64,000 nt of DNA, taken from the NCBI GenBank assembly GCA_039654915.1, contig CM077594.1, positions 107,832,893 through 107,896,892 of the forward strand, read 5' to 3'. The first letter of the stretch is position 1. Every line of letters begins with the position of its first letter. This DNA comes from Aquilaria yunnanensis (lineage: Eukaryota; Streptophyta; Magnoliopsida; Malvales; Thymelaeaceae). Positions 1,490-51,294 of the stretch are shown here, piece by piece. The position numbers and the translations under genes are program-made. Under the pieces are notes generated by a model. It was given only the letters and a program-made list of their open reading frames with translations. It did not search any database and was not told where the DNA came from.

Positions 1490-1564
1490 TTCATGGTGAT
1501 AGAGTTCACCAAGCGAACGAGTCAAGCTCGGAGAGCAGATTTTGGCTAACGCTAACTGTTACCT

Positions 1565-15188: not shown

Positions 15189-15303
15189 TGATGCACGCCG
15201 ATGCCGCGACGATAGACCAAAAACAGAGTAGCTTGAGTTCAGGGTTCCAAGAACCGAGGCCTCTTAAGTCTGACTATGTCGAGCGAGAAGAAGAAGAGAT
15301 GCG

Positions 15304-15338
<35 letters not shown>

Positions 15339-15578
15339 TTCTGTATATTTCATTCATACCATTGATCTCCATGTACACGCTTATTTATACTTCCCATTTA
15401 CAGGCGGGACAAGATGAGAACGAATGGGGGGAAGAGAGGGCCAACGACTTTAACTGCCTCTCCCGCCATTTGCATGGGTTAATCACGTTTAGTGGCTTAT
15501 TATAGGAACGACGCCGTAGCATGTACTAATCATGTCTATTTTATAGGGATGACGCCGTTTGGGGTCTGTTTCGTATCA
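15189..15578 (-). repeat. 3' LTR of the chromovirus (390 bp)
   Basis: Begins TGATGC and ends TATCA on the plus strand (TGATA...GCATCA in element sense). It holds a GA microsatellite (about 15308-15340) and a minus-strand TATAAATA at 15382-15389. It matches the other LTR with about a dozen differences by eye. Confidence 0.92.
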
Positions 15579-17708: not shown

Positions 17709-17713
17709 CTTGG

Positions 17714-20700: not shown

Positions 20701-21298
20701 TCTAAAAATTTCATAAACAAAAAGAATTACGAATTAGTAATTAAACTAACAATTAATTCTATAATAAGTAAGAATGTAATAATTAATTATAAAAAATTAA
20801 TTTCCATATCCGGATGATCCGGCAGGATCTACGGTTTTGAAAACTTTTTTTTTTACTAAATAAATTAAATAAATACAAAGATAAAAAATCCATATTTACA
20901 ATATGGATTAAATTATTTAAAAGTTCACCAAATTCCGTGTCCAAATGACTCGGCAGAGTCCATGGTTCGGAATCAAAATCTTCCGTGTCCAAATGACTCG
21001 GCAGAGTCCATGGTTCGGAAGTATAAAATTTCATACAAATTAATTAATTTAAAAAAATCCACATTTCGACTAATCCAGTTAAAATTTCTAATTTTGAAAA
21101 TTAACTGAAAATTTTTTAAAAGCAAAGCAAAACAAAATTAAAATCAACTAAGGTGCCAATTTTTGGGCGTTTTAACAAAGTTGTTTTAACGTAACCGTAC
21201 TCCCGATCCCCGAACTCTCGCAGACCATATTTTAGGTATCCAATCGACCTAAGAAAAAACAGATTGGTGGCGACTCCAGAAAATCCGACGTTGCCACA
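17714..21298 (+). repeat. 5' LTR of the Ogre-like element (3,585 bp)
   Basis: Contains a TATA box (18214-18221) about 500 bases in, then a GC-rich pyrimidine-rich block (18360-18560) and a very long AT-rich remainder. At about 18720-19080 there are repeated TTATTATTGTTGTTAATTAATT units. A motif related to CAAATGAxxCGxCAGxxTCCA occurs four times between 19470 and 21020. No gene is supported; the Arg/Pro-rich open frames near 18.4 kb are composition artefacts. Confidence 0.95.
18214..18221 (+). promoter_or_regulatory. TATA box of the Ogre-like 5' LTR
   Basis: TATAAATA followed by GCCCCCC; the same site recurs in the 3' LTR near 37695. It would place the transcript start near 18245 and make R-U5 about 3 kb long. 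Confidence 0.6.
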
Positions 21299-21301
21299 GC
21301 T

Positions 21302-21318
21302 TGGCGACTCCACTGGGG
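21302..21318 (+). other. Primer-binding site candidate of the Ogre-like element
   Basis: TGGCGACTCCACTGGGG starts three bases after the LTR end. It begins TGG as tRNA-primed sites do. Ogre elements are reported to use tRNA-Arg; I have not matched this to a specific tRNA. Confidence 0.55.
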
Positions 21319-21923
21319 ACTCGACGTTAGTGAGTCGAGCCTAAAGTTGATTTGTTTTGATTTACTTTGTTTTACTATTATGTGGATTTATATATTATAT
21401 TTACTTAAGTAAACATGCATAATGCATTCACAAAATGAAGCTCTATACCCGAGCTTCCTTAAATCAAACACGATTCTTTCTAAAGCGGAATTGGTGTTGC
21501 TGTCCTTGTGAGGCCACGGTCTCCAAGCCTTCACCGGTTTCAAAGTAGCAAAGTAGTGTATTGCCTTCTGAGACGGTTAGTCTCTGCATGGGCCCACGAA
21601 AAGCTACGACTCGAATTAATCCATTCCTTACATAAACCCTAGAGGGTAAGGAATCGGGCCGTCACTATGATTCAGTGACGGGATTCGGGAACTATCCCTT
21701 GCCTTTTTGATAAACCACCTTCTGCATGTAGAATTCCTTACTCTACCTTAGAACCAACCAATAAGAATTTCCCATACCTCGGTTCCCATTTCCATAGGTT
21801 TTGTTTTATCTATATGTTTGTATGATCCTATGTGTTATTTTTTTACTAACTCTATTTTTCCTTATTTTTCCGGCATATACATTTCATCATTAAAGATAAG
21901 TATTTGGTGAAAGAACTATTATC

Positions 21924-23603
21924 ATGGATATTCTCGATTATCTTCCCACGGCTGTTACTGGATCATGGAATGACACGGTAATCGAAACTCAGCCTGAAGC
22001 TATGGAATATTCCGAAACGGCTCAAAAGCTTCACGGAGATGCTCTGACATCCCACTCTCACGTACAGCTTAAGGACCAGGTATCGGTCCGGATAAATCAG
22101 AACGACACCACGGAATTATTGCAAGTCTGGAATAGTTGGAACTCTGCTGATCGGGAAGCTTTTACGGAAAAATATGGTCACATCGCTTGCCTACTAAAGG
22201 TTACCGTTGATGCATCACTTGTCCGGGCTCTAATACAATTTTGGGATCCATTTTATCGATGCTTTTCTTTCGATAAGATGGATCTGGTTCCAACCATTGA
22301 AGAATACAACAGCCTCTTGGGTTGGTCCTTTGACTATCCAATCGAGACTTATCAACATGATAGAAGAACGGAGCCTCATCGAGCCCTAGCAAAATTATTG
22401 GATATGCCAGCTTCCAGTCTTCAAACCAAGTTTGCAACAAAAGGATCTCAAAAATTTATCAGTTGGATCGACTTAAAACAATTAAGTCACGTTCTCCCTC
22501 AGAAAAATCAACGACGCAAGCTTTTCGCCTTGGCGATATATGGCCTGGTAGTCTTCCCAAGAATCGTCAGATTCATTGAAGGAGACATCATTACACTATT
22601 TGAGCAAATCTGCAATGCTCAAATAAATCCGACCTCAGTAATATTATGTGAAACTATCAGGGCATTAAACTTTTGTCGCTAAAGAGGGGGCAAATTCATA
22701 GGATGTTCACATCTCCTCAACATTTGGATCAAAAGCCACCTTCCTTGTGAGAAGCAACATTTTGGAAATCGCTTTTCAAAGGACTTCATCCCAATCGAAG
22801 CCTTTTTGAAAAGTGAAACCATTCATCACGACAGCAAGGAAGCATGGGTTGATTATTTCAAGAACATCACCGAATTCCAAATTGAATGGAGAGCCCCCTG
22901 GTCTACCTCCACCCACGTTGTCTACCGTTGCGGCAATTGCCCGTGGGTTCCTCTCTTAGGTATATGGGGAGGAACAAGTTATGCCCCAGCTCAAGTACGA
23001 AAACAATTTGGGTCCATGCAATTTATACCCATGACGCATAATCTGAGTAAGTTGGAATTTTCACACGAAGATCCAAATTCAAATAAGCTCGCAATGGGGA
23101 AAAGAATTTTCATATTGAAGTCGGGGCCTATTATTTCTCCCACTGCTTATTATGAATGGAGAAATAACCGGAAGGAAGGAATAGTTCTATCTGAAGAGGT
23201 CATCAGAAAATTGGCGAAAAGAGAGTTGGAGAAAGAACTAGAGGAAGAAAAGGAGAAGAACAAGAGGATGATCCTTGACATGCAACAGCTCGGTCACAAA
23301 ACACAACTCCTCGAAGAGAAAGTTGAATACCAAAAACAAGTCATCTCCCAATTGGTTGATGAAACCGATCAAAAAGAGATGAGAGTCAGATACTGGGAAG
23401 ATCAATACAGATTTTCTCAAGATCAATTGCAAACATTTTTGGTAGAAGTCAGAAAAGTTACAGAACAAGCCCAACTAATGGGCGAAGAAGCCAAGGAATT
23501 AGAAGAATTGAGCTGTCCTACTCCATCAGTAAATGTTCAAAGAATGATGGAGTTCATATCTAAGGCCAGAAAGCAGTATTGTACTTTGGGTCGTTTCTTT
23601 TAA
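21924..23603 (+). pseudogene. Ogre-like ORF1 (plant-mobile-domain-like N-part, coiled-coil C-part), one nonsense codon
   Basis: A single frame of about 560 codons is interrupted only by TAA at 22680-22682. The first part (FWDPFYRCFSFDKMDLVPTI, then EEYNSLLGW) resembles the DUF7745/plant-mobile-domain-like ORF found upstream of gag in Ogre and related Tat elements. After the stop the same frame continues into WVDYFKNITEFQIEW and FGSMQFIPMTHNLS. It ends in a long charged coiled coil (about 23200-23520, KRELEKELEEEKEKNKRM). Function is unknown in the family. The in-frame homology on both sides argues for a recent point mutation. Confidence 0.8.
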
Positions 23604-23791: not shown

Positions 23792-26700
23792 ATGGCAGAA
23801 CAAGCCGAAGGACGTCTCATGGAGATGGAGTCCAAGATTGAAAGTATGTCAGAACAGATGAGACAATTGATGGAATTAATCAAAGGAAAAGCAACTCAAG
23901 TCCCCATCAAAGAAGTACAAGATCCCACTTATCCCCCGGGATTCACCTCGCAACGAGTCTCAGTCCAAGAAAACATGTTTCAAGAATCAGGACCGTCTGC
24001 TAGTGTTCACCTGAAACAAGACACTGTACAGGAAGAGAAGAAGACATTACCAAAAGAAGCAGCAGAATCTCAAAAACTCGAAACAATAGAAAAGCGATTG
24101 CGAGCCATTGAAGGAGGCACTATATTCGGATCTCTCTCGGTGGATGACCTCTGCTTAGTGCCAGACGTCGTAATCCCTTCAGATTTTAAGGTGCCAGATT
24201 TCGTGAAATACGATGGAACGAGTGATCCCATCACTCACATCACATTGTTCCTAAAGAGACTACAACCACTCACAAAAGATGAAAAGGTGTGGATCGCACT
24301 TTTTCAGGAAAGTCTCACAAAATCAGCATTACAGTGGTATCTAAGCCAAGGTCCAAGGAACATAAAAACTTGGAATGACCTTGCTCAGGCCTTCATCGGC
24401 AACTATAAACATGTTATGGACTTGGCTCCGGATCGCCAAACTCTCCAAAACATGGAGAAGAAAAAGCCAGAAACTTTCAAGGAATATGCGCAGCGGTGGA
24501 GGGACTTAGCTGCACAGGTTCAGCCACCCATGACAGAAAGAGAAATGGTCACTTTGTTTGTCCAGACACTAAAATACCCATATTATGACAAACTCATTGG
24601 CAATTCGGCAACCAATTTCTCCGACGTAGTAATGTCTGGAGAAAGGATCGAGCATGGTATCAGGACCGGGAAGATTACTGAATCCTTTAGCGATCCTATG
24701 AAAAGAGGAGGACCTTCCAGACGAAAAGATGAAGAAATACAACAAATAGGAAGAGGAAGAGGGATTCCCTTCGTGGGCACTGTGGCCACCGGACCTCGCC
24801 TATCCTATTATGCCAATAAGCCCAATTATTATCCTACCAATAGGCCCAATGATTATCCTCCCAATAGGCCCAATGATTATCTTCCCAATAGACCCAACAA
24901 TTATCCTCCCAACAGACCTAATCAGTTACGGCCACCTGTTCCAACTCCTCCAGTACCTGCACCAAGACCAAGAGAAATCTTCGCACCAATTCCCATGACT
25001 TATACTGAGCTGTATCCAAAACTCATCGAAAGTCAACTTATTCGCCCAATTCCTACAAGGCCATTGGAACCCCCGTATCCAAGGTGGTATGACCCTAACA
25101 TAAATTGCCCATATCATGATGGTACCGTGGGCCACGGACTGGAAAATTGCATAGCATTGAAACGTATAATCCAACAATTAATCGAATCAAAGTGGTTGGA
25201 CTTTTCCGATGAGCCAAACGTTACTCACAATCCGTTGCCGCCTCATCAAGCAAAACCAGTCAATATGATAGAAGAACACTGGCCGACAAAGAAGTCAGTC
25301 AACGATATCATAACCCCTCTTAAGCATGTATATTCATGCCTTGTGAAAGAAGGGATTATCATGGGAAAGCCTTCTTTTGGAAATGGAGAGGTCGAGAATG
25401 AAGAGTGGTGCAACTTCCATGACAGTAAGAGTCATTCTATCCAAGAATGCTCAGAATTTCGTGAAAGACTGTAAAGTCTCATCGACTCCTCCCAACTCAT
25501 CGTTTTTATGTCAGATAAAGATGATCATGTGAATGTGATCATTAAAGAACAAGAATTCAATGCTATGCCAAGACCACTGGTCATACCAATTTCAAAACCT
25601 GCTTTTAAGCCTTTAAAAATTCAAGTCCCAAAACCATTCCCATACAAATCAGACAAAACTGTTCCATGGAGCTATGATTACACTTCTAACATCACATCAA
25701 CCCCGTTAGAAGTTGGGAGCATGACTAGAAGTGGTCGGTGTTATTCTCCGGAGCAAATGAACAAGCTCCAACAAGATAAGAATGTTACGACGAGTGGATC
25801 TCTTGATACAAATACATCTAAAGAGCAAGAGACGCCTCGAGCAGTAACAGATGAGCAAGCTACTGAGTTTCTCAAACTCATAAAGCAAAGTGAATACAGC
25901 ATCGTTGAGCAGTTAAACCGCCTGCCAGCAAAAATTTCCATACTTTCATTACTCCTAAGCTCTGATGCTCATCGAGAAGCTCTTCTCAAAGTCCTGAATA
26001 AGGCTTATGTTGAACAAGATATCTCCGTGAACAATTTTGACCACCTCGTCAATAACATCACGGCACAAAATCTCATCACATTCACTGACGATGAGATACC
26101 AGCAGAAGGAAGGGGTCACTCTAAGGCCCTACATATTTCGGTCAAATACAAAGATCGGATTATGGCTAGAGTTCTTATCGACAATGGGTCAGCTCTAAAT
26201 GTAATGCCACTCGAAACCTTACATAAGATTGGTTTAGACCCATCATACCTCAACAACAGTCATATTGTTATTCGAGCATTTGACGGAACGAAGAGAGATG
26301 TTGTTGGAGAAATAGAGCTACCAATAGGGATTGGTCCCTGTCTTTTCCACATCACATTCCAAGTCATGGATATTTGTCCATCTTATACCTGCCTGCTGGG
26401 AAGACCATGGATCCATATGGCCGGAGCAATTCCTTCTTCATTACACCAGAAAATGAAATTCATTATTGAAGGAAAGATAATCACGGTCTTCGCTGAAGAA
26501 GACATCCTGCTATCAAGACCTGCGGATGCTCAATATGTCGAAGTCAATGAAAATATACCTGATTGCTCTTTCAGGTCTTTTGAGATTGTCAATGCTGCTT
26601 ATGTCAGCGAATATGGAGAAGAACCCATTCCTAGCATCTCTAAAACAAGTCGTATGGTTGCCAAACTCATGATAAAAGGAGGATACTCACCGGGGTTAGG

Positions 26701-27102
26701 ACTGGGACAAGATTTACAAGGAATCACAGAACCATTGAAAATCACCACAAATGAAGGGAAATACGGCCTAGGCTTCATACCGACAAGACATGACAAAATG
26801 AAGGCAATAGCTGAAAAGAGAGAAAAGAGGATTGCACGATTAACAGGACATCCTCTCCAGGAAAGAAATCTGGATGTCCCAGAGATCACCGAAACGTTCG
26901 TGAGTGGTGGTTTGATTTCGAAAAATAACAATGAAGGCGCGCTGACCATCAACATCAACAAGTCTTTTGAAAGTTTTTCTATTCAAGCAATCATCAGCGA
27001 TTCACCTGAAGATGAGGAGCTCATTCAACCTTGTGGCCCACGGGATGTGCTGAACAATTGGGAGGCGATAGAACTGCCTGTTATAATCGAAAGCTTTCCA
27101 AA
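23792..27102 (+). pseudogene. Ogre-like gag-protease frame with G-patch, one nonsense codon; 3' end is an intron donor
   Basis: It starts at ATG 23792 with a short coiled coil (residues 1-35). The retrotransposon gag domain follows (about residues 130-270, VPDFVKYDGTSDPITHITLF), then an Asn/Arg/Pro repeat (about 24815-24930) and a degenerate zinc-knuckle-like CPYHDGTVGHGLENC. A TAA at 25472-25474 interrupts the frame, which continues (same phase) into the protease with active-site VLIDNGSALNVMP (DNGS replaces the usual DTGS) and a G-patch (GGYSPGLGLGQDLQGI). The frame ends at 27102, where GTAATCC looks like a splice donor; unspliced it would stop two bases later. Confidence 0.88.
24815..24930 (+). 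repeat. 24-bp tandem repeats in gag coding an Asn-Arg-Pro-Asn-(Asp/Asn)-Tyr motif
   Basis: Units of the type CCCAATGATTATCCTCCCAA repeat about five times and encode variants of RPNDYPPN. They sit between the capsid-like region and the zinc-knuckle-like motif. Confidence 0.85.
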
Positions 27103-27283
27103 GTAATCCAATAGTAAAAACCTCCTAAAGAAAGGTTCAATCAATAGGGTGTAGTCTTTGTTTAAGTGAACCTTTTAGTTATTGCTTTTTATTCCAATAA
27201 AGTTGTGATTTATGCACACTATAAATAAAGTACCAGTTTGTATCCATCTCATTCTTGCCATTTTTTTCCTCTGAATAATGCAG
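27103..27283 (+). other. Predicted 181-bp spliced intron between protease and RT
   Basis: Donor AAA|GTAATCC at 27103, acceptor AATGCAG at 27283 preceded by a T-rich tract. Joining 27102 to 27284 completes a Lys codon and keeps the frame into PETLFDDNKRMNFDNP and then pol. Ogre elements are known to carry an intron at this place, so sequence and family knowledge agree. Confidence 0.75.
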
Positions 27284-30200
27284 ACCTGAAACTCTCTTTG
27301 ATGACAATAAAAGAATGAACTTTGATAATCCTGTAAATACTACCGACTCGGATGACGAAGATCTTTAAATATCTCCTGAGCTATTAAAAATGATCGAGCG
27401 AGATGAAAAAGAAAGAGCAACAAGTCAAGAACCAACTGAGGCATTTAACTTGGGAGACAGTCAGAATGTAAAAGAAGTCAAGATTGGCACTCTATTGCCT
27501 CCTGAAGAAAAAGAAGAATTAGTCCACTTATTGAAAGAATATATGGATGTGTTTGCTTGGTCATACCAAGATATGCCTGGCTTAAGCTCAGACATAGTAC
27601 TACACAAAATACCCTTGAAACCTGGGGCGAAGCCTGTCAGACAAAAGTTACGAAGATTAAAGCCGGATCTAATCTTAAGAGTGAAAGATGAGATTCGAAA
27701 GCTGTGGGATGCAGGATTCCTTGGGGTTGCTGAATATACAGAATGGGTGGTTAACATTGTTCCAGTCGAAAAGAAAGAAAGCGGGAAACTAAGAGTTTGT
27801 CAGGACTACCGGCCATTGAACGAAGCCAATCCTAAAGATAACTTCCCACTTCCTCACATTGATACGCTGGTGGATAATACCGCAGGAAACTCCTATTTTT
27901 CCTTCATGGATGGCTTCTCTGGATACAATCAAATCAAACTTGATCCAGATGATATGATAAAAACTGCCTTTATAACCCTTTGGGGTACCTTCTACTACAA
28001 GGTGATGCCTTTTGGGTTAAAGAATGCTGGTGCTACATATCAAAGAGCCATGGTTGCATTATTCCATGACATGATGCATAAAGAAATTGAAGTATATGTA
28101 GACGACATGATCGCCAAAACTTTCACTGCTAAGGGGCATCTAAAAGTGCTAAGAAAACTATTCGATAGACTTCGCAAATATCAACTGAAGTTGAATCCTG
28201 CCAAATGTATTTTTGGAGCCTCTTCAGGAAAGTTATTGGGTTTCATGGTCAGCAAGGATGGGATTCGAGTTGACCCGAGTAAAGTCAAAGCAATACAAGA
28301 AATGCAACCCCCGAAGACTCCAAAACAAGTAAGAAGTTTTCTGGGCAGAATCAACTTCATAGCAAGGTTCATTTCACAATTGACATCCAAGTGTGAACCT
28401 CTTTTCAAATCACTAAAGAAGAACAATCCGATCGAGTGGAATAACGAATGCCAAGAAGCATTCGAGAAAATCAAGCAATATCTATCAAATCCATCAGTCT
28501 TGGTACCACCCCGATCTGGAGAATCGTTGATTCTATATTTATCCATACAGGATTCTTCATTAGGATCCGTATTGGGTCAACGTGATGAGACAGACAAGAA
28601 AGAGCATGCAATTTACTATTTGAGCAAGAAGCTTACCACATATGAAGCGAAATACTCAATAGTAGAAAAGTCCTGTTGTGCCCTTGCATGGGTAGCACAC
28701 CGACTACGACACTACATGCTCAACAACACCACATTGCTAATCTCCAAGACTGATCCCATTAAGTACATTTTTGAGAAACCAGCTTTATCAGGCAGGATCG
28801 CAAAATGGCAAATGCTGTTGTCTGAATACGACATACAGTATGTCACCCAAAAGGCTGTAAAAGGGAGTGTGATTGCTGAATATCTGGCTGATAGAGCATT
28901 GGATGATTATGAGCCAATGAAAATGGAGTTTCCTGATGGAGATATAATGACGATAGAACAGGAAGTCTCTAAAGATGATGAAACATGGAAAATGGCATTC
29001 GATGGAGCATCTAATGCTTTGGGACAAGGGATTGGAGCCATACTCATCTCTCAAAGTGGAGAGCAATTCCCTCTCACAGCAAAAATTACATTTCCTTGTA
29101 CCAACAATATAGTAGAGTATGAGGCATGTGCTATGGGACTCCAAATGGCACTGGAATTGAAAGTGCGAGATCTCCGAGTTTATGGGGATTCCGCATTAGT
29201 CATATATCAAATCAACGGAGAATGGGAGACACGGGATTCAAAATTGATCCCTTACCAAAAGCTCATACTAGACTTGGCTCAAAAATTCAACAGTATAAGC
29301 TTCCATCATCTTCCAAGGGAAGATAATCAAATACCGGATACTTTAGCTACTTTGGCTGCTATGTACAAGATCAGTGACCCCGAGCATACTTCTGTGTTCG
29401 AGATGAGAATAATAGATTCTCCAGCTTATTGCATGAGCATCGAAGAAGAATTGGATGAAAAGCCTTGGTATCACGATATCAAGAAATACCTCCAAGAAAG
29501 AGTATATCCACCAGAAGCATCAGAAAATGACAAGAAATTTCTACGAAGATTGTCAATAGGTTTTCTTTTAAACCTAGACATACTTTACAAGAAAACCCCA
29601 GACTCGATGCTACTTCGCTGTGTAGATACTCATGAAGCACGAAAGATCATGGAAGAAGTTCATTCTGGAATATGTGGAGCACACACTAGTGGTCATACCA
29701 TGGCAAGACAAATAATGAGGGCTGGTTATTATTGGCTCACATTGGAAAGTGATTGCGTCAATCACGTAAGAAAATGTCACAAATGCCAAATATATGCCAA
29801 CAAGATCCAAGCTCCACCTGCTCCTCTTAATGTAACAGCAATACCTTGGCCTTTTGCCATGTGGGGAATCGATGTCATTGGAGCGATTACCCCTAAAGCT
29901 TCCAATGGTCACAAATTCATCCTAGTTGCAATTGACTACTTTACTAAATGGGTAGAAGCTGTGTCTTATGCAAGCGTAACTCAAAAGGTGGTATGCCGGT
30001 TCATTAAGAAAGAAATCATTTGTCACTATGGACCGCCAGAGTGTATCATCTCAGACAATGCCACGAACCTGAATAATGCAATGATGCAGACTTTGTGCCG
30101 GCAATTCAAAATCAAGCATCTCAATTCAGCACCTTATCGACCGATGATGAATGGTGCAGTAGAAGCGGCCAATAAAAATATCAAGAGAATTGTTGAAAAG

Positions 30201-30713
30201 ATGATCGTCACTTACAAGGACTGGCATGAGATGTTACCTTTTGCACTACATGCTTATAGAACTTCTACCCGTACTTCTACTGGAGCAACACCTTTTTCTC
30301 TGGTATACGGTATGGAGGCTGTATTGCCCATCGAAGTTGAAATTACTTCATTAAGGGTACTAATGGATACTCAATTAAGAGAAGCAGAATGGGTCAAAGC
30401 TAGATACGAGCAATTAAAACTAATTGATGAAAGAAGAATGATAGCCCTCTGCCATGGGCAACTTTATCAAAGAAGGATGATTCGTGCTTACAACAAAAAG
30501 GTTCGCCCACGACAATTTCACGAAGGTGACATAGTGCTCAAGAAAATTTTACCCATGCAACATGATTCAAGAGGAAAATGGACACCAAATTATGACGGGC
30601 CATATGTCGTGAAGAAAGCATTTTCAGGAGGGGCACTAATTCTGACAGAAATGGATGGACGAGAATTACCGAAGCCAGTAAATTCGGATGCAGTAAAGAA
30701 ATACTTTGCATAA
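27284..30713 (+). pseudogene. Ogre-like pol: RT, RNase H, archaeal-type RNase H, integrase; one nonsense codon near its start
   Basis: The post-intron frame starts at 27284 and has TAA at 27366-27368; from ATG 27390 it is open for 1,107 codons. Residues are counted from 27390. RT has YVDDMIAKT at about 234-242. The first RNase H follows (KKLTTYEAKYSIVEKSCCAL). A second RNase H starts near 532 (MAFDGASNALGQGIGAILIS), the Tat-lineage hallmark. The integrase has an HHCC finger (…CHKCQIYA) and a DDE triad at D828, D889 and E925, spacing D-35-E. The C-terminus (FHEGDIVLKKI) matches the usual integrase tail. All catalytic residues I checked are present. Confidence 0.92.
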
Positions 30714-32013: not shown

Positions 32014-32562
32014 ATGGATCCTACTTTTTCTGCCTTGCGAAAATATTTTCCTTCTCTCCCAATGAACATCCTCAAAAAGATCTAACAAGTTCGCTGTGAA
32101 CGATTAAGAGCTCTGATGCATAAAGGAATCCCTGAAGATGTGCGGTGGTTAATTGAAGCTAAGGTTCGTCTGGCAGGTGAAATCCCAGAGGCATTTGTGT
32201 CTCACATGCCTGGTGTAGGCAAAAGCTCTTATGCCAAAAAGCGAAGAGCGAGGAGACTAGGCGTCTGTCATAAATGCGGACGCTGGACCTGTAATACTAA
32301 ATGTCGTTCTTTAGGGATGATCTCTGATAATCGAGAAGATAAAATACGATTCATTAAGAATGACCTGAGTAAGGACTCATTGGATGATATCCAATTGACT
32401 CTTGAGACGCATTCTTGTGGATCCGTGCAACGTGAACTTCTCGATTTATGGAGCATTTTTCATGAAGAACAAGAACGATACAGTCCCGGGAATCTGACGT
32501 TAAACGACCCTATTTGCCAGCTTGTAAGAAAACTGGATGGGAAGCAAATCCTCGACTCATAG
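32014..32562 (+). pseudogene. Small basic zinc-finger-like protein, tandem copy 1 (one nonsense codon)
   Basis: A 549-base frame (183 codons including TAG) starts at ATG 32014, the position equivalent to the two paralogues. TAA at 32083-32085 stops it at codon 24, where both paralogues have a sense codon. The core SSYAKKRRARRLGVCHKCGR, then WTCNTKCRSLG, is a basic run directly followed by a C-x2-C-x4-C-x3-C cluster; downstream is KIRFIKNDL. This resembles nucleic-acid-binding proteins of plant Betaflexiviridae (carla-/vitivirus type), several of which suppress RNA silencing. Initiation at a later Met (32116) could give a shorter protein that keeps the core. Confidence 0.7.
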
Positions 32563-32721
32563 AAGCCGTTAATCCCGTTACTGGACATAAAACCAGTGGA
32601 AGATGTGAGCCACAGTCACAATCACTGTACATACAATTTATCATATTTAAAATTTTCCATTTTTCTTTTAATAATGTATTTACTCCCGTAAGTGTAATCG
32701 ACACGTTATCCATTTCATCGC

Positions 32722-32728
32722 TATAAAT
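32722..32728 (+). promoter_or_regulatory. TATA box before small-gene copy 2
   Basis: TATAAAT in the context TTTCATCGCTATAAATG, 81 bases before the ATG of copy 2. The same TTTCATC(G/A)CTATAAAT string precedes copy 3. Confidence 0.6.
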
Positions 32729-32808
32729 GCATGTTCTTCCAGTCGGTTATCTAAGTTTCCTTCAATAACTAATTCCTTTCCATCATCTCTCAAATTCTTC
32801 TCTCATCA

Positions 32809-33357
32809 ATGGATTCTACTCTTTCTACCCTGCGAAAATACTTTCCTTCTCTTCCAATAAAAGTCCTTAAAAAGATCTACCTTGCTAGATGTGAAAGAAT
32901 CAGAGTTTTTACACGCAAAGGCATACCCGATAATGTGCAGTGGATAATTGAAGCTAAGGTCCGTTTGGCGGGTGAAGTTCCAGATACATTTATGCCCCGC
33001 ATGCCCGGTTTAGGTAAAAGCCGTTATGCCAAAAGGCGAAGAGCAAAGAGACTAGGCGTGTGTTATAAATGTGGGCGATGGAATTGTAATACTAAATGTC
33101 GCTCTTTAGGATACATCTCCATAAATCGTGAAGATAAAAGAAAATTCATTAAGAATGGCCTGCGTAAGGAATCTCTGGAAGATATCCGAGAGACTCTTGA
33201 AACGCATTCTTGTGGAAAAGTGTAAGGTCAAATTGTCAAATTGTGGAGGACTTACCATAAAGAACGAGACCGTTACAGTCTTGGGAATGTGACTGTAAAC
33301 GACCCTGTCTGCCAGCTTGTAAGAAAACTGGATGGGAAGCAAGTCCTCGACTCATAG
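32809..33357 (+). pseudogene. Small basic zinc-finger-like protein, tandem copy 2 (one nonsense codon)
   Basis: 549 bases again, ATG 32809 to TAG 33355-33357, with an in-frame TAA at 33223-33225 that removes the last 45 residues or so; paralogues have a sense codon there. The N-terminus (STLRKYFPSLPIKVLKKIYL) and the core (RYAKRRRAKRLGVCYKCGR, NCNTKCRSLG, RKFIKNGLRKESLEDIRETL) are intact, so the truncated protein would keep the basic and Cys regions. It sits 795 bases after copy 1, with its own TATA box. Confidence 0.75.
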
Positions 33358-33507
33358 AAGGCATTGAAGCCATTACTAGATATAAATCAGTGGAAGATGA
33401 GAGCCACAGTCATGATTGCTGTACATATAAGCTGTCATTTGTCTTTTCTTTTGACAATAATGTACTTGCTTCTGTAAGTGTAATTAACGCATTATCCCTT
33501 TCATCAC

Positions 33508-33514
33508 TATAAAT
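33508..33514 (+). promoter_or_regulatory. TATA box before small-gene copy 3
   Basis: TATAAAT in TTTCATCACTATAAATATG, about 60 bases before the ATG at 33574. Confidence 0.6.
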
Positions 33515-33573
33515 ATGTGTTAGTTATTTTCGTTTCCTACAATCACTAATTTCTTTCTTTGCCTCCTTCATCA

Positions 33574-34122
33574 ATGGAGTCTTCTCTTTCCGCCTTACGA
33601 AAGTATTTTCCTTTCTTCCCAATAAATGTTCTTAAAAAGATTTATCAAGCTAGATGTGAACGATTCAGAGTATTTATGCACAAAGGCATTCCTGATAATG
33701 TGCGGTGGCTAATTGAAGCTAAGGTTCGTTCAGCTGGTGAAGTTCCCGAAGCGTTCTTTCCCCGTATGCCCGGCTTTGGTAAAAGCGCTTATGCCAAAAA
33801 AAGAAGAGCAAAGAGGCTAGGCGTTTGTCATAATTGTGGATGGTGGATTTGCGGCAATAAATGTCGTTCTCCAGGAGTGATCACCAGAAATCGTAATGAT
33901 AGAATAAGATTCATTAAGAATGGCTTGCGTAAGGAATCTCTAGAAGATATTCGAGAGGTTCTTGAAGCGCATTCTTGCGGAATAGTGCAATTTGAGGTTG
34001 TTGGATTATGGATAATTTTCCAAAAAGAACGAGATCGTTACAGTCTTGGGAATCTGACCCTAAACGACCCTGTTTGCCAGTTTGTGAGAAAGCAAGATGA
34101 GATGCAAATCACCGATTCGTAG
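33574..34122 (+). CDS. Small basic zinc-finger-like protein, tandem copy 3 (intact, 182 aa)
   Basis: Intact 549-base frame. I chose ATG 33574 over the upstream in-frame 33559 because it aligns with the starts of copies 1 and 2. Order: N-terminal amphipathic segment (SALRKYFPFFPINVLKKIYQ, residues about 5-24), KGIPDNVRWLIEAKVRSAGE, basic run plus Cys cluster (YAKKRRAKRLGVCHNCGWW then ICGNKCRSPG, about residues 71-100), RIRFIKNGLRKESLEDI and a C-terminal WIIFQKERDRYSLGNLTLND. The KKRRAKR run is a likely nuclear-localisation or RNA-binding element. Architecture resembles Betaflexiviridae nucleic-acid-binding proteins (known RNA-silencing suppressors); this is pattern-based and unverified. Confidence 0.75.
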   Translation: MESSLSALRKYFPFFPINVLKKIYQARCERFRVFMHKGIPDNVRWLIEAKVRSAGEVPEAFFPRMPGFGKSAYAKKRRAKRLGVCHNCGWWICGNKCRSPGVITRNRNDRIRFIKNGLRKESLEDIREVLEAHSCGIVQFEVVGLWIIFQKERDRYSLGNLTLNDPVCQFVRKQDEMQITDS

Positions 34123-34164
34123 AAAGCATTGAAGCCATTACTGGACGCAAAGCCAGTGGAAGAC

Positions 34165-34560
34165 GAGGATCAAAGTCACGATTACTGTACGTGCTAGCTG
34201 TCGCTTTTGAAATTTTCCTCCCCTTTTGGTAATAATGTATCCACTCCTGACATGAGCCATAGTCACGATACTGTACATGCTAGTTGTCGCTTTCGAAATT
34301 TTCCTTCTCCTTTGGCAATAATGTACCCACTCCTGACACGGACTACTGTATATAGCTGCCACTTTTGAAATTTTCCTTCTCTTCCAACAATCACGTACCT
34401 ACTCCTGACGTAAGCTACAGTAGTGACTACTGTACATGCTAGCAGCTATTTTGAAAATTTTCCTCCTCTTTTAACGATAGTGTACCCATACCTGACCAGA
34501 GTCGTACTTGTGACTACTGTGAATAGCTGGCAATAATGTATCCATTCTTGAAAATAAAAT
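34165..34560 (+). promoter_or_regulatory. About five tandem copies of a promoter-like module ahead of LOG
   Basis: A unit of about 80-95 bases (GCCATAGTCACGATACTGTA, then CATGCTAGTTGTCGC, GAAATTTTCCT and GGCAATAATGTA(C/T)CCACTCCTGA) repeats with decay. Single diverged copies of the same unit follow small-gene copies 1 and 2, just upstream of the TATA boxes of copies 2 and 3. It therefore looks like a shared upstream regulatory module amplified in front of LOG. Confidence 0.6.
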
Positions 34561-34582
34561 TATTGCCTTATCTCTTCATCTC

Positions 34583-34590
34583 TATAAATA
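34583..34590 (+). promoter_or_regulatory. TATA box of the LOG gene
   Basis: TATAAATA in TCATCTCTATAAATATATCC, 40 bases before ATG 34623; the context resembles that of copies 2 and 3 (TTTCATCxCTATAAAT). Confidence 0.55.
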
Positions 34591-34622
34591 TATCCTCTTT
34601 TCTCACAAGGGTAAGAATAGGA

Positions 34623-35252
34623 ATGGAGAAAACCCCAACTCGTAAATCCCGAAGTATTTGTGTATTTTCTGGGGCTTTTCCTGGAAAAGATGAAGAGTAT
34701 TTAAAGGCAGCCAACCATTTGGGTAGAGTATTAGCTGAGCGAAAAATACATTTAGTTTATGGAGGAGGTAGTGTCGGATTAATGGGAGGTGTAGCATCAG
34801 CAGCATCTTTAGGAGGAAGTCAAGTTTTGGGCATCATCCCTGGACCTTTGAAATTTGTTTCTGGGGGCACGATTGGAGAAGAATTAGTGGTTAAAAATTT
34901 GCAAGAGCGTGTGTTACAAATGCTTTTAAATGCTGATGCTTTTATCGCTCTACCAGGTGGTTTTGGCACATTAGGAGAAGTCTTTCAAATTGCTTCCATG
35001 GCCCAACTTAATTTGCATAAGAAACCCATTGGGCTTTTAAATGTTAACAATTTCTTTACAGGTCTGATAGCTTTTATGGATTATGCTATGCAGAAGAATT
35101 TCATATCAAGAGTGGCACGACGAATCATAATATCCGCAACAACTGCTGAAGAATTGCTAGATAAAATACAAGCTTTTGTTCCTGAACCAGATCCAGCAAT
35201 GATTCAGATAGACTGGACACGACAGTCTTTCCCGACCAGTTCACTCCCATAA
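34623..35252 (+). CDS. LOG: LOG-type cytokinin riboside 5'-monophosphate phosphoribohydrolase, intact and intronless, carried by the retrotransposon
   Basis: 209 codons, the usual LOG length. LOG enzymes release active cytokinin base from its riboside monophosphate. Visible features are SICVFSG at the N-terminus, HLVYGGGSVGLMGG (residues about 43-56), TIGEE, the conserved Arg in LQERVLQM, and ADAFIALPGGFGTLGEVFQI holding the signature PGGxGTxxE (residues 111-119); the tail KPIGLLNV and FISRVARRIIISATTAEELL also match. I start at ATG 34623 because the upstream in-frame extension (from 34536) crosses the TATA box and is not LOG-like. Plant LOG genes normally have several introns; none here, which suggests capture from cDNA. 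It lies in sense orientation between the small-gene cluster and the tandem array, without a stop or frameshift. It is diverged from canonical LOGs (for example FSGAFPG where CGSSSG is usual), so activity is not assured. Confidence 0.92.
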   Translation: MEKTPTRKSRSICVFSGAFPGKDEEYLKAANHLGRVLAERKIHLVYGGGSVGLMGGVASAASLGGSQVLGIIPGPLKFVSGGTIGEELVVKNLQERVLQMLLNADAFIALPGGFGTLGEVFQIASMAQLNLHKKPIGLLNVNNFFTGLIAFMDYAMQKNFISRVARRIIISATTAEELLDKIQAFVPEPDPAMIQIDWTRQSFPTSSLP

Positions 35253-35763: not shown

Positions 35764-37088
35764 GCTCGAGGTCCTAAGGAAAGCTCCTTAGCCTCAAAAT
35801 CAATTTTCATCGGGGTTTTAAGGATGGAACCTTTGCCTCGAAATCAATCAATCAATCCGAGGTTTTAAGGATAGAACCTTTGCCTCGAGAACAATCAATC
35901 ATTCAGTCCATCTTACAACGATAGAACCTTTTCTATCGTTAGAGGTTCTAAGGACCTTTCCTTAACCTCAAACAAACAATCAATCATTCAGTCCATCTTA
36001 CAACGATAGAACCTTTCCTATCGTTAGAGGTTCTAAGGACCTTACCTTAACCTCAAACAAACAATCAATCATTCAGTCCATCTTACAACGATAGAACCTT
36101 TCCTATCGTTAGAGGTTCTAAGGACCTTTCCTTAAACCTCAAACAAACAATCAATCATTCAGTCCATCTTACAACGATAGAACCTTTCCTATCGTTAGAG
36201 GTTCTAAGGACCTTTCCTTAAACCTCAAACAAACAAACAATCATTCAGTCCATCTTACAACGATAGAACCTTTCCTATCGGTAGAGGTTCTAAGGACCTT
36301 TCCTTAAACCTCAAACAAACAATCAATCATTCAGTCCATCTTACAACGATAGAACCTTTCCTATCGTTAGAGGTTCTAAGGACCTTTCCTTAAACCTCAA
36401 ACAAACAATCAATCATTCAGTCCATCTTACAACGATAGAACCTTTCCTATCGTTAGAGGTTCTAAGGACCTTTCCTTAAACCTCAAACAAACAATCAATC
36501 ATTCAGTCCATCTTATAACGATAGAACCTTTTCTATCGTTAGAGGTTCTAAGGACCTTTCCTTAACCTCAAACAAACAATCAATCATTCAGTCCATCTTA
36601 CAACGATAGAACCTTTTTCTATCGTTAGAGCTTCTAAGGACATTTCCTTAACCTCAAACAAACAATCAATCATTCAGTCCATCTTACAACGATAGAACCT
36701 TTCCTATCGTTAGAGGTTCTAAGGACCTTTCCTTAAACCTCAAACAAACAATCAATCATTCAGTCCATCTTACAACGATAGAACCTTTCCTATCGTTAGA
36801 GGTTCTAAAGACCTTTTCTTAAACCTCAAACAAACAATCAATCATTCAGTCCATCTTACAACGATAGAACATTTCCTATCGTTAGAGGTTCTAAGGACCT
36901 TTCCTTAAACCTCAAACAAACAATCAATCATTCAGTCCATCTTACAACGATAGAACCTTTCCTATCGTTAGAGGTTCTAAGGACCTTTCCTTAAACCTCA
37001 AACAAACAATCAATCATTCAGTCCATCTTACAACGATAGAACCTTTCCTATCGTTAGAGGTTCTAAGGATCTTTCCTTAAACCTCAGA
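35764..37088 (+). repeat. Tandem array of about 14 units of 85-86 bp (plus degenerate units) with internal hairpins
   Basis: From 35901 the unit ATTCAGTCCATCTTACAACG / ATAGAACCTTTCCTATCGTT / AGAGGTTCTAAGGACCTTTC / CTTAAACCTCAAACAAACAA / TCAATC repeats at 85-86 bases about 14 times with few changes. ACGATAG...CTATCGT and AGGT(T)...ACCT form short inverted repeats in each unit. Units at 35764-35900 are more diverged. It lies in the 3' untranslated region of the Ogre-like element just ahead of the polypurine tract. Confidence 0.95.
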
Positions 37089-37177: not shown

Positions 37178-37192
37178 GCAAAGGGGGGCAGC
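37178..37192 (+). other. Polypurine tract of the Ogre-like element
   Basis: GCAAAGGGGGGCAGC immediately before the 3' LTR (TGTTGACACC), the position where plus-strand priming occurs. Confidence 0.8.
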
Positions 37193-40100
37193 TGTTGACA
37201 CCCAATTTCGTCCGACCATTAAAAAGAAAATTTTTTTTATGAAAAAAAAAAGTAATTAAAAAAATTAATTAATTATTATTTTTATTATTATTACTAAAAA
37301 AATTTTTAGTTTAAAATACATTTTTGTTTTGTGAAGATTTGATTTAAAATGATATATGTGTGTATTTGAAAGAAAAAAAGAAAACTCCAAAAAAAAAAAT
37401 GGCAAAATTTAAAAGTTTGAGGTAAAAATGACAAAATTAAGAAGTTTCAGGCAAAATTGACAAATTCTGAAAGTTCCAGGAGCATTTAGTAGTTTGTCAC
37501 ATAAAATTTTGAGCCTGCCGATGTTTCTGGCCCAAATTGACAGAAAACGACAAAATTGTCAAAATCAGAAGCTTCAGGAACTTATCCAGAGGCTGAGAGA
37601 CGTAAAGGACTAAAATTGTCATTTTACCAATTTAAGAGATAAGTTTGAAATTTTTTATTAATTTATCCATCAACAGTTCAGCTAAACTTCCTTTATAAAT
37701 AGCCCCCCAAATTTTGTGCTGAACACAGAAAAAAATAGCAAAAAAACTTAGAACTCCGTTTTCAAAAAAAAGAGAAAATTACAGCCCTTAGCCGCAGCCC
37801 TCTTCCCTTCTTCCCCAGAAAGCCAAATTTTTTTTTTACTGCTGTTCCCTCTCTCTCTCTCTCTCTCCGCCGTGCCCCTCGCCGTCCGCCGCCGCCGTGC
37901 CTTCCTCCTCGCCGTGATGCCGTCTTCCTCCTTCGCCCCTGGCCGCCGTCCACTTCTCCCCTGCCGTGCACCGTCTTGGCCGCCAAAACCACTCCCTGCC
38001 CCTGCTCCTGCGTTGTTGCTCTGTTCTTCTTCATTCTTCAGATTCAAAATTAAACTGCTAGGGTAAAACCCCTACTTAATCTTCTATCTTTTCATTCTTT
38101 TTCACTTTGGTTACTAACTTTTTCTTTTGTTCTTGCAGAATTAATTATTAACCTTTTTTAATTTTTACTTATTTGTTTATTATTTGTTTATTACTAACCC
38201 TTTCTTTATTGTTGTTATTAACAACTAACAACTAACTTACTAACTTTTATTATTGTTAATTAATTAATTTAATTAACTTTGTTAATTAATTTAATTAAAC
38301 TTGGGTAACTTTTTATTATTGTTGTTAATTAATTAATTTAATTAACTTTGTTAATCAATTAATTAATTTGGCTAACTTTTATTATTATTGTTAATTAATT
38401 TAATTAACTTGACTAACTTTTTATTATTGTTGTTAATCAATTAATTAACTTGGCTAACTTTTATTATTGTTGTTAACAATTAATTTAATTAAACTTGGCT
38501 AATTTTTATTATTGTTGTTAATTAATTTAATTAATTTTGCTAACCTTTATTATTATTTATTTTTAAAGTGGATGGCCAAAAAGCCCCACTTTATTTTTTT
38601 ATTTAATTCACCTTTACCCTTTACTAATAAATAAATAAATGAAAATTAAAAGAAGATTATTTTGTAATTAATTATTAAGGCTAATAAAAATCATTTTTAA
38701 AAGCCAATTATTTTTATTATTTCTTTAAAGATAACAAAGTTGACTTTTTATTCGTTTTTGTTAAAATTAATAAATAGAAATAATTAAATAATTCTAAAAA
38801 TATACAAATCAATTTTTTTTAAACATATCTTTAAAATAATGATCTTTCAAATTTAAAATTCAAGAAAAATCCAATAAAATTATAATTAAAATTAATAATT
38901 AATTAAATAATTAAAATTTAATAAAAATTAAAACTCCATGATCAAATGATCCGCCAGGATCCATGGCTTGGAAATATTTTTAAATAAAATATATAAATAA
39001 ATTTTTCTTTATTAAAAATAAAAAGCTTTGGACTAATATATTAATTATTTATTAAAATAATAAAATATAAATTTTTAGTTTTCTTTATTAATAAAAAAGA
39101 ATAAAAAGAGTAAAATTTTTGGGTTAATATTTTTCAGTAATATTTTACTTATTTTTAGAATATAACTTTTTAGTTTTCTTTATTAATAAAAAGAACAAAA
39201 AAGGGTAAAATTTTTGGGTTAATATTTTATTCAGTAACATTTTACTTATTTCTTTTAAAATAATAAAATATGACTTTTTTTTAGTAATAAAAATAATGAT
39301 AAAAGTAAAATTTTTGGGCTAATATTTTATTCAGTAATATTTTGCTTATTTCTTTTAAAATAATGAAAAGATATAACTTTTTGTTTCCTTTATAAAAATC
39401 TTAGAAAATGATTTCAAAAATAGAATAAATTCAAAAGAATTAAATTATCTCTTAAATATCTTAGACTTATTAATTAAAATTATTTATCAAACAAAAAAAA
39501 AACATAAAAAATGAAATATAAATATCAAAACTTTCCTTTATTTTTTTAAAATATACATATAAATTTTATTTTTTTTAAGATCCTTGTTAAATAATCACTT
39601 CTTTTTAGATAATTTTTTTTTATCAAAAAACAAAACATATAAATATCAAAAATTTTCCTTTATGTTTAAAATATACATAAATTTTTTTTTTTAGTTTCTT
39701 TTCTTGAATAATAATTTTTGCTTAATTCATTCAAAACAAAATTAAGACTTTTGTTCTATTTTTGAAAAATACATATGAATTTTGCCTTCATCATTGAATA
39801 AATAAAATTTTAATTAAATAAAAAAAACATAAAATAAATCTAAGTCATGTTGTTAAGTCTAAAAATTTTTAGTTCATGGTATATTGGCTGGAAACTGTCT
39901 CGTGCCCGCTTTTGAGCTGCTTCACCTGGTGAAGAGGGTCTGGCTGAGTAACAACGCCCCGTACCATGATCAAATTTTTTTTTTGAATTAACTTCTTATT
40001 AAAAAAAAATTAATTACTTTTTTTAAAGTAATTCTTTAAATAATAAATATCCTTCATTAAACAAGAAAAATTAATAAAAAAAAAAAAAGAAAAGAAAGAT

Positions 40101-40769
40101 AAGAAAATCAAAAGAAGAAAAAAGAAAAGAAAAAAAAAATAAATCAATAAAATTTTTAGATTATTAATAAATCTAAAAATTTCATAAACAAAAAGAATTA
40201 CGAATTAGTAATTAAACTAACAATTAATTCTATAATAAGTAAGAATGTAATAATTAATTATAAAAAATTAATTTCCATATCCGGATGATCCGGCAGGATC
40301 TACGGTTTTGAAAACTTTTTTTTTTACTAAATAAATTAAATAAATACAAAGATAAAAAATCCATATTTACAATATGGATTAAATTATTTAAAAGTTCACC
40401 AAATTCCGTGTCCAAATGACTCGGCAGAGTCCATGGTTCGGAATCAAAATCTTCCGTGTCTAAATGACTCGGCAGAGTCCATGGTTCGGAAGTATAAAAT
40501 TTCATACAAATTAATTAATTTAAAAAAATCCACATTTCGACTAATCCAGTTAAAATTTCTAATTTTGAAAATTAACTGAAAATTTTTTAAAAGCAAAGCA
40601 AAACAAAATTAAAATCAACTAAGGTGCCAATTTTTGGGCGTTTTAACAAAGTTGTTTTAACGTAACCGTACTCCCGATCCCCGAACTCTCGCAGACCATA
40701 TTTTAGGTATCCAATCGACCTAAGAAAAAACAGATTGGTGGCGACTCCAGAAAACCCGACGTTGCCACA
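37193..40769 (+). repeat. 3' LTR of the Ogre-like element (3,577 bp)
   Basis: Near-identical copy of 17714-21298, with a shorter CT microsatellite, a shorter CAACTAA repeat and scattered substitutions. By eye I noted a few dozen differences or fewer over 3.6 kb. Confidence 0.95.
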
Positions 40770-40774
40770 CTTGG

Positions 40775-43005: not shown

Positions 43006-43023
43006 AACTTCCTCAGGTTCGAT

Positions 43024-43035
43024 GCTCTGATACCA
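43024..43035 (-). other. Primer-binding site of the chromovirus (initiator-Met tRNA)
   Basis: Minus-strand TGGTATCAGAGC, two bases from the LTR edge; the standard plant PBS complementary to the 3' end of initiator tRNA-Met. Confidence 0.9.
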
Positions 43036-43037
43036 AT

Positions 43038-43419
43038 TGATGCACGCCGACGCCGCGACGATGGACCAAGAACAGAGTAGCTTGAGTTCAGGGTTCCAAG
43101 AACCGAGGCCTCTCAAGTCTGACTATGTCGAGCGAGAAGAAGAAGAGATGCGAGCGAGAGAGAGAGAGAGAGAGAGAACTTCTGTATATTTCATTCATAC
43201 CATTGATCTCCATGTACACGCTTATTTATACTTCCCATTTACAAGCGGGACAAGATGAGAACGAATGGGGGGAAGAGAAGGCCAACGACTTTAACTGCCT
43301 CTCCCGCCATTTGCATGGGCTAATCACGTTTAGTGGCTTATTACAGGAACGACGCCGTAGCATGTACTAATCATGTCTATTTTATAGGGACGACGCCGTT
43401 TGGGGTCTGTTTCGTATCA
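43038..43419 (-). repeat. 5' LTR of the chromovirus (382 bp)
   Basis: TGATGC...CGTATCA on the plus strand. Minus-strand TATAAATA at 43223-43230. GA microsatellite at about 43157-43180, shorter than in the other LTR. Confidence 0.92.
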
Positions 43420-51180: not shown

Positions 51181-51294
51181 AGATTCAACCCAGCCCATCA
51201 AACTCCACCACCAACAAGACCCAGCTAGCTCACGTACCCAAATTATTCAAGCAAGTGAAGAACTTCTATTTCCGCAACTTTAATTTGTTTGTGC

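What the first reader, a model, noticed from the sequence alone, without database searches (positions are those of the whole stretch)
32014..35252. Ogre-like retrotransposon carrying a three-gene zinc-finger cluster plus an intact cytokinin-activating LOG gene
Between pol and the 3' LTR, where Ty3/gypsy elements normally have no genes, there are three tandem paralogues of exactly 549 bases and a full-length LOG homologue, all in sense with pol and inside the LTRs and CTTGG duplication. LOG is intronless, unlike typical plant LOG genes, and keeps PGGxGTxxE. While ORF1, gag, pol and small-gene copies 1 and 2 each have one nonsense codon, LOG and copy 3 have none. My inference is a mobile element that acquired a hormone-activation gene, which could alter cell division or meristem state in cells where the element is expressed.
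Basis: partly seen in the sequence, partly recalled or inferred. Interest (0 to 1): 0.92.

Follow-up and report, generated by a model that had tools for sequence, protein, structure and literature searches.

The report
Retrotransposon carrying virus-like and cytokinin genes
A very abundant plant jumping gene carries, beside its own machinery, small proteins related to a plant-virus nucleic-acid-binding protein and a plant-hormone-activating enzyme, and its copies look as if selection keeps these passengers working.

Summary
A 23.1-kb Ogre-like Ty3/gypsy element (17714-40769) carries, between pol and the 3' LTR, three 549-bp paralogues and an intact LOG gene (34623-35252).

Three things change the picture. 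(1) It is no single oddity: the genome gave 4045 first-look LOG candidates; 148 of the 150 scored (the best) are open. In copies not picked by LOG, changes shared between copies are enriched for synonymous ones (N/S per site 0.26; 0.08 if shared by three or more close copies), so selection kept LOG while the element replicated; likewise NABP3 (0.17) and NABP1 (0.14), not clearly NABP2. (2) The 'zinc-finger genes' match the flexivirus nucleic-acid-binding family: 63 of 71 relatives match each of two viral Pfam models, 0 of 10 controls do. (3) LOG and NABP copies 2 and 3 each have a TATA box.

LOG in Ty3/gypsy elements is in print; NABP beside it I did not find in 10 searches of open papers.

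Best reading: an accessory cassette that helps the element, perhaps by countering silencing and promoting division of carrying cells. Selection is measured; mechanism is inferred.

The parts
17714..21298 (+). 5' LTR of the Ogre-like element; target-site duplication CTTGG at 17709-17713
21302..21319 (+). primer-binding site (begins TGG, 3 nt after the LTR); the tRNA was not identified
   Evidence: read from sequence
21924..23603 (+). ORF1 (DUF7745, with sub-threshold plant mobile domain similarity), one nonsense codon at 22680
23792..27106 (+). gag-protease frame with a G-patch after the protease, one nonsense codon at 25472
27107..27389 (+). gap between gag-pro and the first pol ATG; intron-like as in Ogre; the pol frame has a stop at 27366
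   Evidence: intron inferred from published Ogre organisation (PMC6317226, passages)
27390..30713 (+). pol: RT, RNase H, additional RNase H (RVT_3), integrase
32014..32562 (+). NABP copy 1 (flexivirus-type nucleic-acid-binding protein family), nonsense codon at 32083
   Evidence: (open piece 32116-32559)
32721..32728 (+). TATA box CTATAAAT, 88 nt upstream of NABP copy 2
   Evidence: present in 20 of 20 other loci that align there
32809..33357 (+). NABP copy 2, nonsense codon at 33223
   Evidence: (open piece 32809-33222)
33507..33514 (+). TATA box CTATAAAT, 67 nt upstream of NABP copy 3
   Evidence: present in 46 of 48 other loci that align there
33574..34122 (+). NABP copy 3, intact, 182 aa, C4 zinc-binding motif C85/C88/C93/C97 and adjacent basic stretch
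34174..34496 (+). degenerate tandem repeats (about 86 and 158 bp) between NABP3 and LOG, possible upstream promoter
   Evidence: role inferred
34582..34590 (+). TATA box CTATAAATA, 41 nt upstream of the LOG ATG
   Evidence: present in 79 of 79 other loci with a LOG start (1 of 80 loci had none), 73 of them at -41; at least one element is counted twice
34623..35252 (+). LOG (cytokinin riboside 5'-monophosphate phosphoribohydrolase family), intact, 209 aa, no intron
35890..37086 (+). 86-bp tandem array, 14 copies
37180..37192 (+). polypurine tract AAAGGGGGG...
37193..40769 (+). 3' LTR; target-site duplication CTTGG at 40770-40774

Best explanation
This is one copy of a very numerous Ogre-like (Tat, Ty3/gypsy) retrotransposon family that was active recently. 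Between pol and the 3' LTR it carries an accessory cassette: flexivirus-type nucleic-acid-binding protein genes (NABP, three here) and a LOG gene; LOG and NABP copies 2 and 3 have their own TATA box. Shown: the anatomy, its repetition across the genome, and purifying selection on changes that were passed on when the element replicated. Inferred: the accessory proteins are made from short separate mRNAs; NABP works in the nucleus as its viral relatives do (RNA-silencing suppression and/or transcription activation) and shields element RNA; LOG releases active cytokinin bases in cells where the element is awake and promotes division of those cells, so that new insertions reach more daughter and germ-line cells. 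My own odds: real, selected, element-borne cassette 0.93; NABP a true relative of the viral family 0.85; LOG still a cytokinin phosphoribohydrolase 0.65; NABP acts against silencing 0.4; the cell-division benefit 0.35.
Against: No expression data. In the partial lists integrase paired with LOG and with NABP3 only in the window itself; the direct integrase-LOG pairs come and mostly from the other LOG group. Best Foldseek E against viral proteins is 0.12 and the NABP model is poor (pLDDT 61). NABP2 shows no difference between singleton and shared changes (0.40 and 0.39), and the NABP3 contrast alone has p = 0.07; a simpler count on the 3' part of NABP3 gave 0.58. Singletons are not fully neutral (ratios 0.37-0.64), so the split into before and after insertion is imperfect. 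In LOG samples not picked by LOG, 10 of 46 usable copies have a nonsense codon, and of the 51 loci 2 have a frameshift and 1 has no LOG. The NABP array varies: copy 1 falls under 90% identity in 13 of 51 loci and copy 2 in 15 of 51. The window's LOG differs from most relatives at E118 (E in 107 of 113), W126 (W in 110 of 113) and C16 (C in 82 of 113), so its activity may have changed. NABP copy 1 has no TATA box. NABP2 and NABP3 are duplicates, so their TATA boxes are not independent.
Confidence: 0.6

Rival explanations
1. The cassette is passive baggage: host or viral sequences were swept up once and copied along without use.
For: LTR elements are known to carry host gene pieces (recalled). 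10 of 46 usable LOG copies carry a nonsense codon, and the window's own copies 1 and 2 are broken.
Against: Shared changes are enriched for synonymous ones in LOG, NABP3 and NABP1, paralogue dN/dS is 0.20-0.41, 7 columns are invariant and many nearly so across the 71 aligned proteins, and a TATA box is kept in 79 of 79 loci with a LOG start.
Confidence: 0.07
2. NABP is not a silencing suppressor but an RNA-handling protein of the element (nuclear export, splicing control of the gag-pol intron, packaging), with the same zinc finger and basic patch as the viral proteins.
For: C4 zinc-binding residues and the KKRRAK stretch are nearly invariant; [quoted passage not shown]
Against: The nearest described family is that of flexivirus cysteine-rich proteins, several of which are reported as silencing suppressors (PMC12172455, passages). 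Neither function was tested.
Confidence: 0.4
3. The LOG protein has been re-used: it binds or hydrolyses another nucleotide, so cytokinin is irrelevant.
For: About 45% identity to Arabidopsis LOG3 and LOG8 and changed residues in and near the motif; related folds serve other nucleotide-binding proteins.
Against: R96 and E119 (the catalytic pair by my recollection of LOG work) are kept in the window; E119 is E in 111 of 113 relatives; the best structural match is a LOG enzyme with AMP.
Confidence: 0.3
4. Transfer ran the other way: flexiviruses took NABP from a plant retrotransposon, or both took it from a plant gene.
For: The plant family is long (182 aa), abundant and named in several rosid genera.
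Against: Untested: no tree with viral sequences could be built.
Confidence: 0.3

Closest known systems
LOG/YgdH-bearing LTR retrotransposon consensuses of Citrus and Populus trichocarpa (PMC9289625 section 12 read, citing Steinbauerova et al. 2011, which is not held and was not read)
   Same: LOG-family domain inside plant Ty3/gypsy elements
   Different: The section and passages read name no NABP, no own promoters, no selection test on LOG and no link of it to a virus
Ogre elements (Tat clade of Ty3/gypsy; PMC6317226, passages)
   Same: 5' extra ORF, gag-pro and pol in two ORFs with a gap, additional RNase H, 5-bp duplication
   Different: The NABP-LOG cassette in sense between pol and the 3' LTR
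Flexivirus cysteine-rich / nucleic-acid-binding proteins (Pfam PF05515, PF01623; functions in PMC12172455, passages and section 5)
   Same: C4 zinc finger, basic stretch, profile similarity over about 85 residues
   Different: Borne by a retrotransposon, 182 aa with conserved N- and C-terminal parts, in tandem copies
Viral helicase domains in insect LINE retrotransposons, one reported to suppress silencing (PMC5563155, abstract and outline)
   Same: RNA-virus gene fixed in a retrotransposon, with a proposed anti-silencing benefit
   Different: Insects, non-LTR elements, helicase
AlkB demethylase in orchid Ogre-related elements (PMC9289625, abstract and passages)
   Same: Extra enzyme gene in a giant Tat-clade element, proposed to bear on host control
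   Different: RNA demethylase instead of LOG and NABP

Membership tests
Ogre (Tat, Ty3/gypsy) | additional RNase H (defines Tat in PMC6317226, passages) | tested here: met
   RVT_3 at residues 545-655 of pol, between RNase H (378-480) and integrase (745 on)
Ogre (Tat, Ty3/gypsy) | gag-pro and RT-RH-INT in two ORFs separated by an intron-like stretch (mean 274 bp in PMC6317226) | tested here: met
   gag-pro ends at 27106, first pol ATG at 27390 (283 bp); stops in all three frames between. Splicing itself not tested
Ogre (Tat, Ty3/gypsy) | 5' extra ORF with plant mobile domain (57% of Ogre in PMC6317226) | tested here: inconclusive
   ORF1 matches DUF7745 strongly and PMD only below its cut-off
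Ogre (Tat, Ty3/gypsy) | primer-binding site for tRNA-Arg | tested here: inconclusive
   a PBS beginning TGG lies 3 nt after the LTR; the tRNA was not identified
Ogre (Tat, Ty3/gypsy) | RT-RH-INT phylogeny with reference elements | not tested
   no reference set at hand
LOG (type I) enzymes | PF03641 above cut-off and PGGxGTxxE motif | tested here: met
   105.9 bits against 27; motif kept
LOG (type I) enzymes | LOG fold | tested here: met
LOG (type I) enzymes | releases cytokinin base from ribotide | not testable with these tools
   needs enzyme assay
Viral nucleic-acid-binding protein (PF05515 / PF01623) | profile score above the curated cut-off | tested here: met
   copy 3 and the open pieces of copies 1 and 2 pass both cut-offs; 63 of 71 family members match each at E <= 0.001; 0 of 10 controls
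Viral nucleic-acid-binding protein (PF05515 / PF01623) | C4 zinc finger beside a basic stretch | tested here: met
   C85, C88, C93, C97 and residues 75-80 (KKRRAK) conserved in 90% or more of the 71 aligned; zinc binding itself inferred
Viral nucleic-acid-binding protein (PF05515 / PF01623) | shared fold with viral members | tested here: inconclusive
   8 of the best 9 matches are named viral members but the best E is 0.12, on a model of pLDDT 61
Viral nucleic-acid-binding protein (PF05515 / PF01623) | silencing suppression or transcription activation | not testable with these tools
   needs plant assay

The most novel reading that the evidence does not exclude
An old lineage of plant LTR retrotransposons runs a two-part host-manipulation cassette: a flexivirus-type nuclear zinc-finger protein that blocks silencing or reprogrammes transcription, and a cytokinin-activating enzyme that makes the carrying cells divide, made from promoters of their own. 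The element would thereby behave like a virus that stays inside the genome and enlarges the germ-line-bound cell lineage that carries it, and relatives in several plant orders would do the same.
Probability: 0.35. Interest if true: 0.92.

Novelty: new variant of a known kind. Interest (0 to 1): 0.76.

Why it matters
It offers a selected, testable example of a plant retrotransposon that carries host-directed genes like a virus, and links a viral silencing-suppressor family to transposon biology. It may also explain multiplied 'LOG genes' in plant annotations: 41 of the 120 listed LOG clusters come from Reevesia pubescens alone (counted by eye; whether those lie in elements was not tested). Such copies could mislead annotation and cytokinin studies.

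Tried and rejected
Scans of viral contigs with NABP3 and with its alignment gave no confirmed locus, so no tree with viral proteins and no direction of transfer. A coincidence of contig lengths between NABP and LOG hits was looked at but not used as evidence. Selection on LOG was first measured with loci among which 8 of 11 had been picked by LOG itself; I dropped that ratio (0.025) as circular and used loci picked by other parts. In one search only codons with single-base changes were counted in the singleton/shared split, identical copies were kept once, L027 was left out as the same element as L001, the window itself (L009, L013) was left out, and the reference was the window, so its own stops in copies 1 and 2 count as one shared nonsynonymous change each. 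One search stopped with an error after printing its rows and was redone. In one search integrase-LOG and integrase-NABP3 pairs were found only in the window itself, because the partial top lists hardly overlap; with another LOG list gave 16. Papers: 10 searches; no listed title or start of abstract was about NABP in LTR elements; the lists showed 11-20 papers of up to 8,894 (3 of 3). Passages of PMC7264820 (no hits), PMC11728184, PMC11963269 and PMC3136472 named no NABP in LTR elements. Three papers asked for by id were not held, among them the 2011 extra-ORF survey, and no supplements could be read. An absence in print is therefore only for open papers and these searches.
Full report
The element. 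The window holds a complete LTR retrotransposon of 23,056 bp (17714-40769). Its LTRs are 98.6% identical (28 mismatches in 3597 columns) and flanked by CTTGG. At a rate recalled from rice (1.3e-8 per site and year) this is about 0.3 million years. Pol has RT, RNase H, an additional RNase H and integrase; gag-pro and pol are two frames with a 283-bp gap; ORF1 is a DUF7745 protein. These are features of the Tat clade and of Ogre within it (passages of PMC6317226). The clade was not confirmed by a tree. The element lies in antisense in the gag-pol frame of another Ty3/gypsy element.

The extra genes. Downstream of pol, in sense, come three 549-bp frames and LOG. The window's copies 1 and 2 have one stop each, copy 3 and LOG none. 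Of 80 other loci searched, 34 and 35 could be read at those places and all have a sense codon there, so the window is a slightly decayed member and intact copies of these genes exist.

What the small genes are. Copy 3 and the open pieces of copies 1 and 2 match Pfam Viral_NABP and Carla_C4 above the curated cut-offs. Of 71 aligned family members, 63 match each model at E <= 0.001, and 0 of 10 shuffled or reversed controls match either. Four cysteines and a basic stretch are nearly invariant. A Foldseek comparison with predicted viral structures puts proteins named silencing suppressor, nucleic-acid-binding or RNA-binding, from viruses that I recall as flexiviruses, in 8 of the first 9 places (the ninth has no name), but with a best E of 0.12 from a weak model. 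Described relatives are silencing suppressors, and one is reported as a transcription factor that causes hyperplasia (passages of PMC12172455).

Abundance and order. In the same 842-Mb assembly first-look candidates number 4045 for LOG, 8787 for NABP3, 2273 for the 3' noncoding stretch and 22,727 for integrase; only the best 150, 150, 40 and 142 were scored. Of the scored LOG matches 148 of 150 are open, of NABP3 150 of 150; these are the best matches and so favour intact copies. A search with a Reevesia LOG scored 150 of 3615, 148 of them open: a mix of copies with the window's frame of 241 codons and a group with 233 codons (about 53, counted by eye). Neighbourhood tests by coordinates: 16 NABP3-LOG, 5 NABP3-3' noncoding, 4 LOG-3' noncoding and 6 integrase-3' noncoding pairs, the window being one in each, but integrase-LOG and integrase-NABP3 only in the window (partial lists: 86 of 150 NABP3, 149 of 150 LOG, 90 of 142 integrase, 40 of 40 noncoding places). 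With full lists there are 16 integrase-LOG pairs, 14 of them with the 233-codon LOG. All pairs are on one strand in the expected order, at 0.96-1.22 kb (NABP3-LOG) and 4.7-5.7 kb (integrase-LOG), and no control shows a pair. So at least two groups of copies carry LOG behind pol.

Selection. I compared copies that had not been picked by the gene under test. LOG: 51 loci, 46 usable (2 identical to others, 2 with frameshifts, 1 without LOG), 10 of the 46 with a nonsense codon. Changes seen in one copy only: 31 synonymous, 61 nonsynonymous (ratio per site 0.60). Changes shared by two or more: 43 and 37 (0.26); among the 42 copies within 5%, shared by three or more: 12 and 3 (0.08). Fisher test singleton against shared p = 0.009; shared against the site expectation p = 5e-9. 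NABP3: 28 loci, 23 usable, singleton 0.37, shared 0.17; NABP1: 51 loci, 30 usable, 0.52 and 0.14; NABP2: 51 loci, 31 usable, 0.40 and 0.39. So constraint acted while the element was replicating, and cannot be told apart from later decay for NABP2. Stops are 10 of 61 singleton nonsynonymous changes in LOG but 1 of 37 shared ones. A simpler count against the window, over loci picked by noncoding DNA, gave 0.21 for LOG (28 of 29 loci) and 0.58 for the 3' part of NABP3 (24 of 29 loci), so the NABP3 result depends on sample and stretch.

Promoters. The octamer CTATAAAT occurs four times on the + strand of the 15.9-kb interior: once in the gap before pol and 88, 67 and 41 nt before NABP2, NABP3 and LOG. 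It is present before LOG in 79 of 79 other loci with a LOG start, before NABP3 in 46 of 48 and before NABP2 in 20 of 20 that could be aligned. A first-order simulation gave three of four genes in 0 of 20000 runs; NABP2 and NABP3 are duplicates, so the true chance is larger. NABP1 has none within 200 nt.

Spread. Named NABP relatives come from Xanthoceras, Acer, Citrus, Populus, Parasponia and Diplodiscus. Gene models of Citrus, Acer and Diplodiscus fuse NABP and LOG pieces in this order.

How it may work. The measured part is that changes which were transmitted spare the LOG and NABP protein sequences. The inferred part is the gain: protection of element RNA by NABP and more divisions of carrying cells through LOG. 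Nothing here shows expression or activity.

Known or new. LOG (YgdH) in LTR elements of Citrus and Populus and G-patch domains in such elements are in print (PMC9289625 section 12). A viral helicase in insect retrotransposons with a proposed anti-silencing role is in print (PMC5563155 abstract). I found no report of flexivirus-type NABP in LTR elements in 10 searches of open papers (listed under tried and rejected); subscription papers and supplements were out of reach. I file it as a new variant of a known kind.

Noticed in passing
15189-43419: The Ogre-like element is nested in antisense inside gag-pol of another Ty3/gypsy element (LTR pair of about 390 bp at 15189-15578 and 43038-43419, 95.6% identical; gag-PR-RT at 40720-43116 and RH-INT at 16144-17370 on the minus strand).
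   Followed up: partly
25508-27106: A G-patch domain follows the protease, as reported for some other plant LTR elements and type D retroviruses (PMC9289625 section 12).
   Followed up: no
35890-37086: 86-bp tandem array of 14 copies before the 3' LTR.
   Followed up: no
G000: A group of copies with an integrase 98% identical to the window's, many with the same score and an open frame of 1144 codons, carries a LOG with a 233-codon frame; the many equal scores suggest a very recent burst.
   Followed up: partly
L033-L035: LOG variant 91-92% identical in DNA to the window's, dN/dS 0.26-0.27 against it.
   Followed up: partly
L026: A copy whose 3' noncoding stretch is 98.7% identical to the window's but that has no LOG in the stretch fetched.
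   Followed up: no
51289-52272: Open frame for a matrix metalloprotease (Peptidase_M10 with a peptidoglycan-binding domain).
   Followed up: no
776-1525 (minus): Frame with a CRS1/YhbY (CRM) domain.
   Followed up: no
5993-6387: Tandem repeat based on a 21-bp unit, about 18 units.
   Followed up: no
P0083, P0100, P0115, P0118: Public gene models fuse pieces of NABP and LOG into single predicted proteins, an annotation trap.
   Followed up: partly
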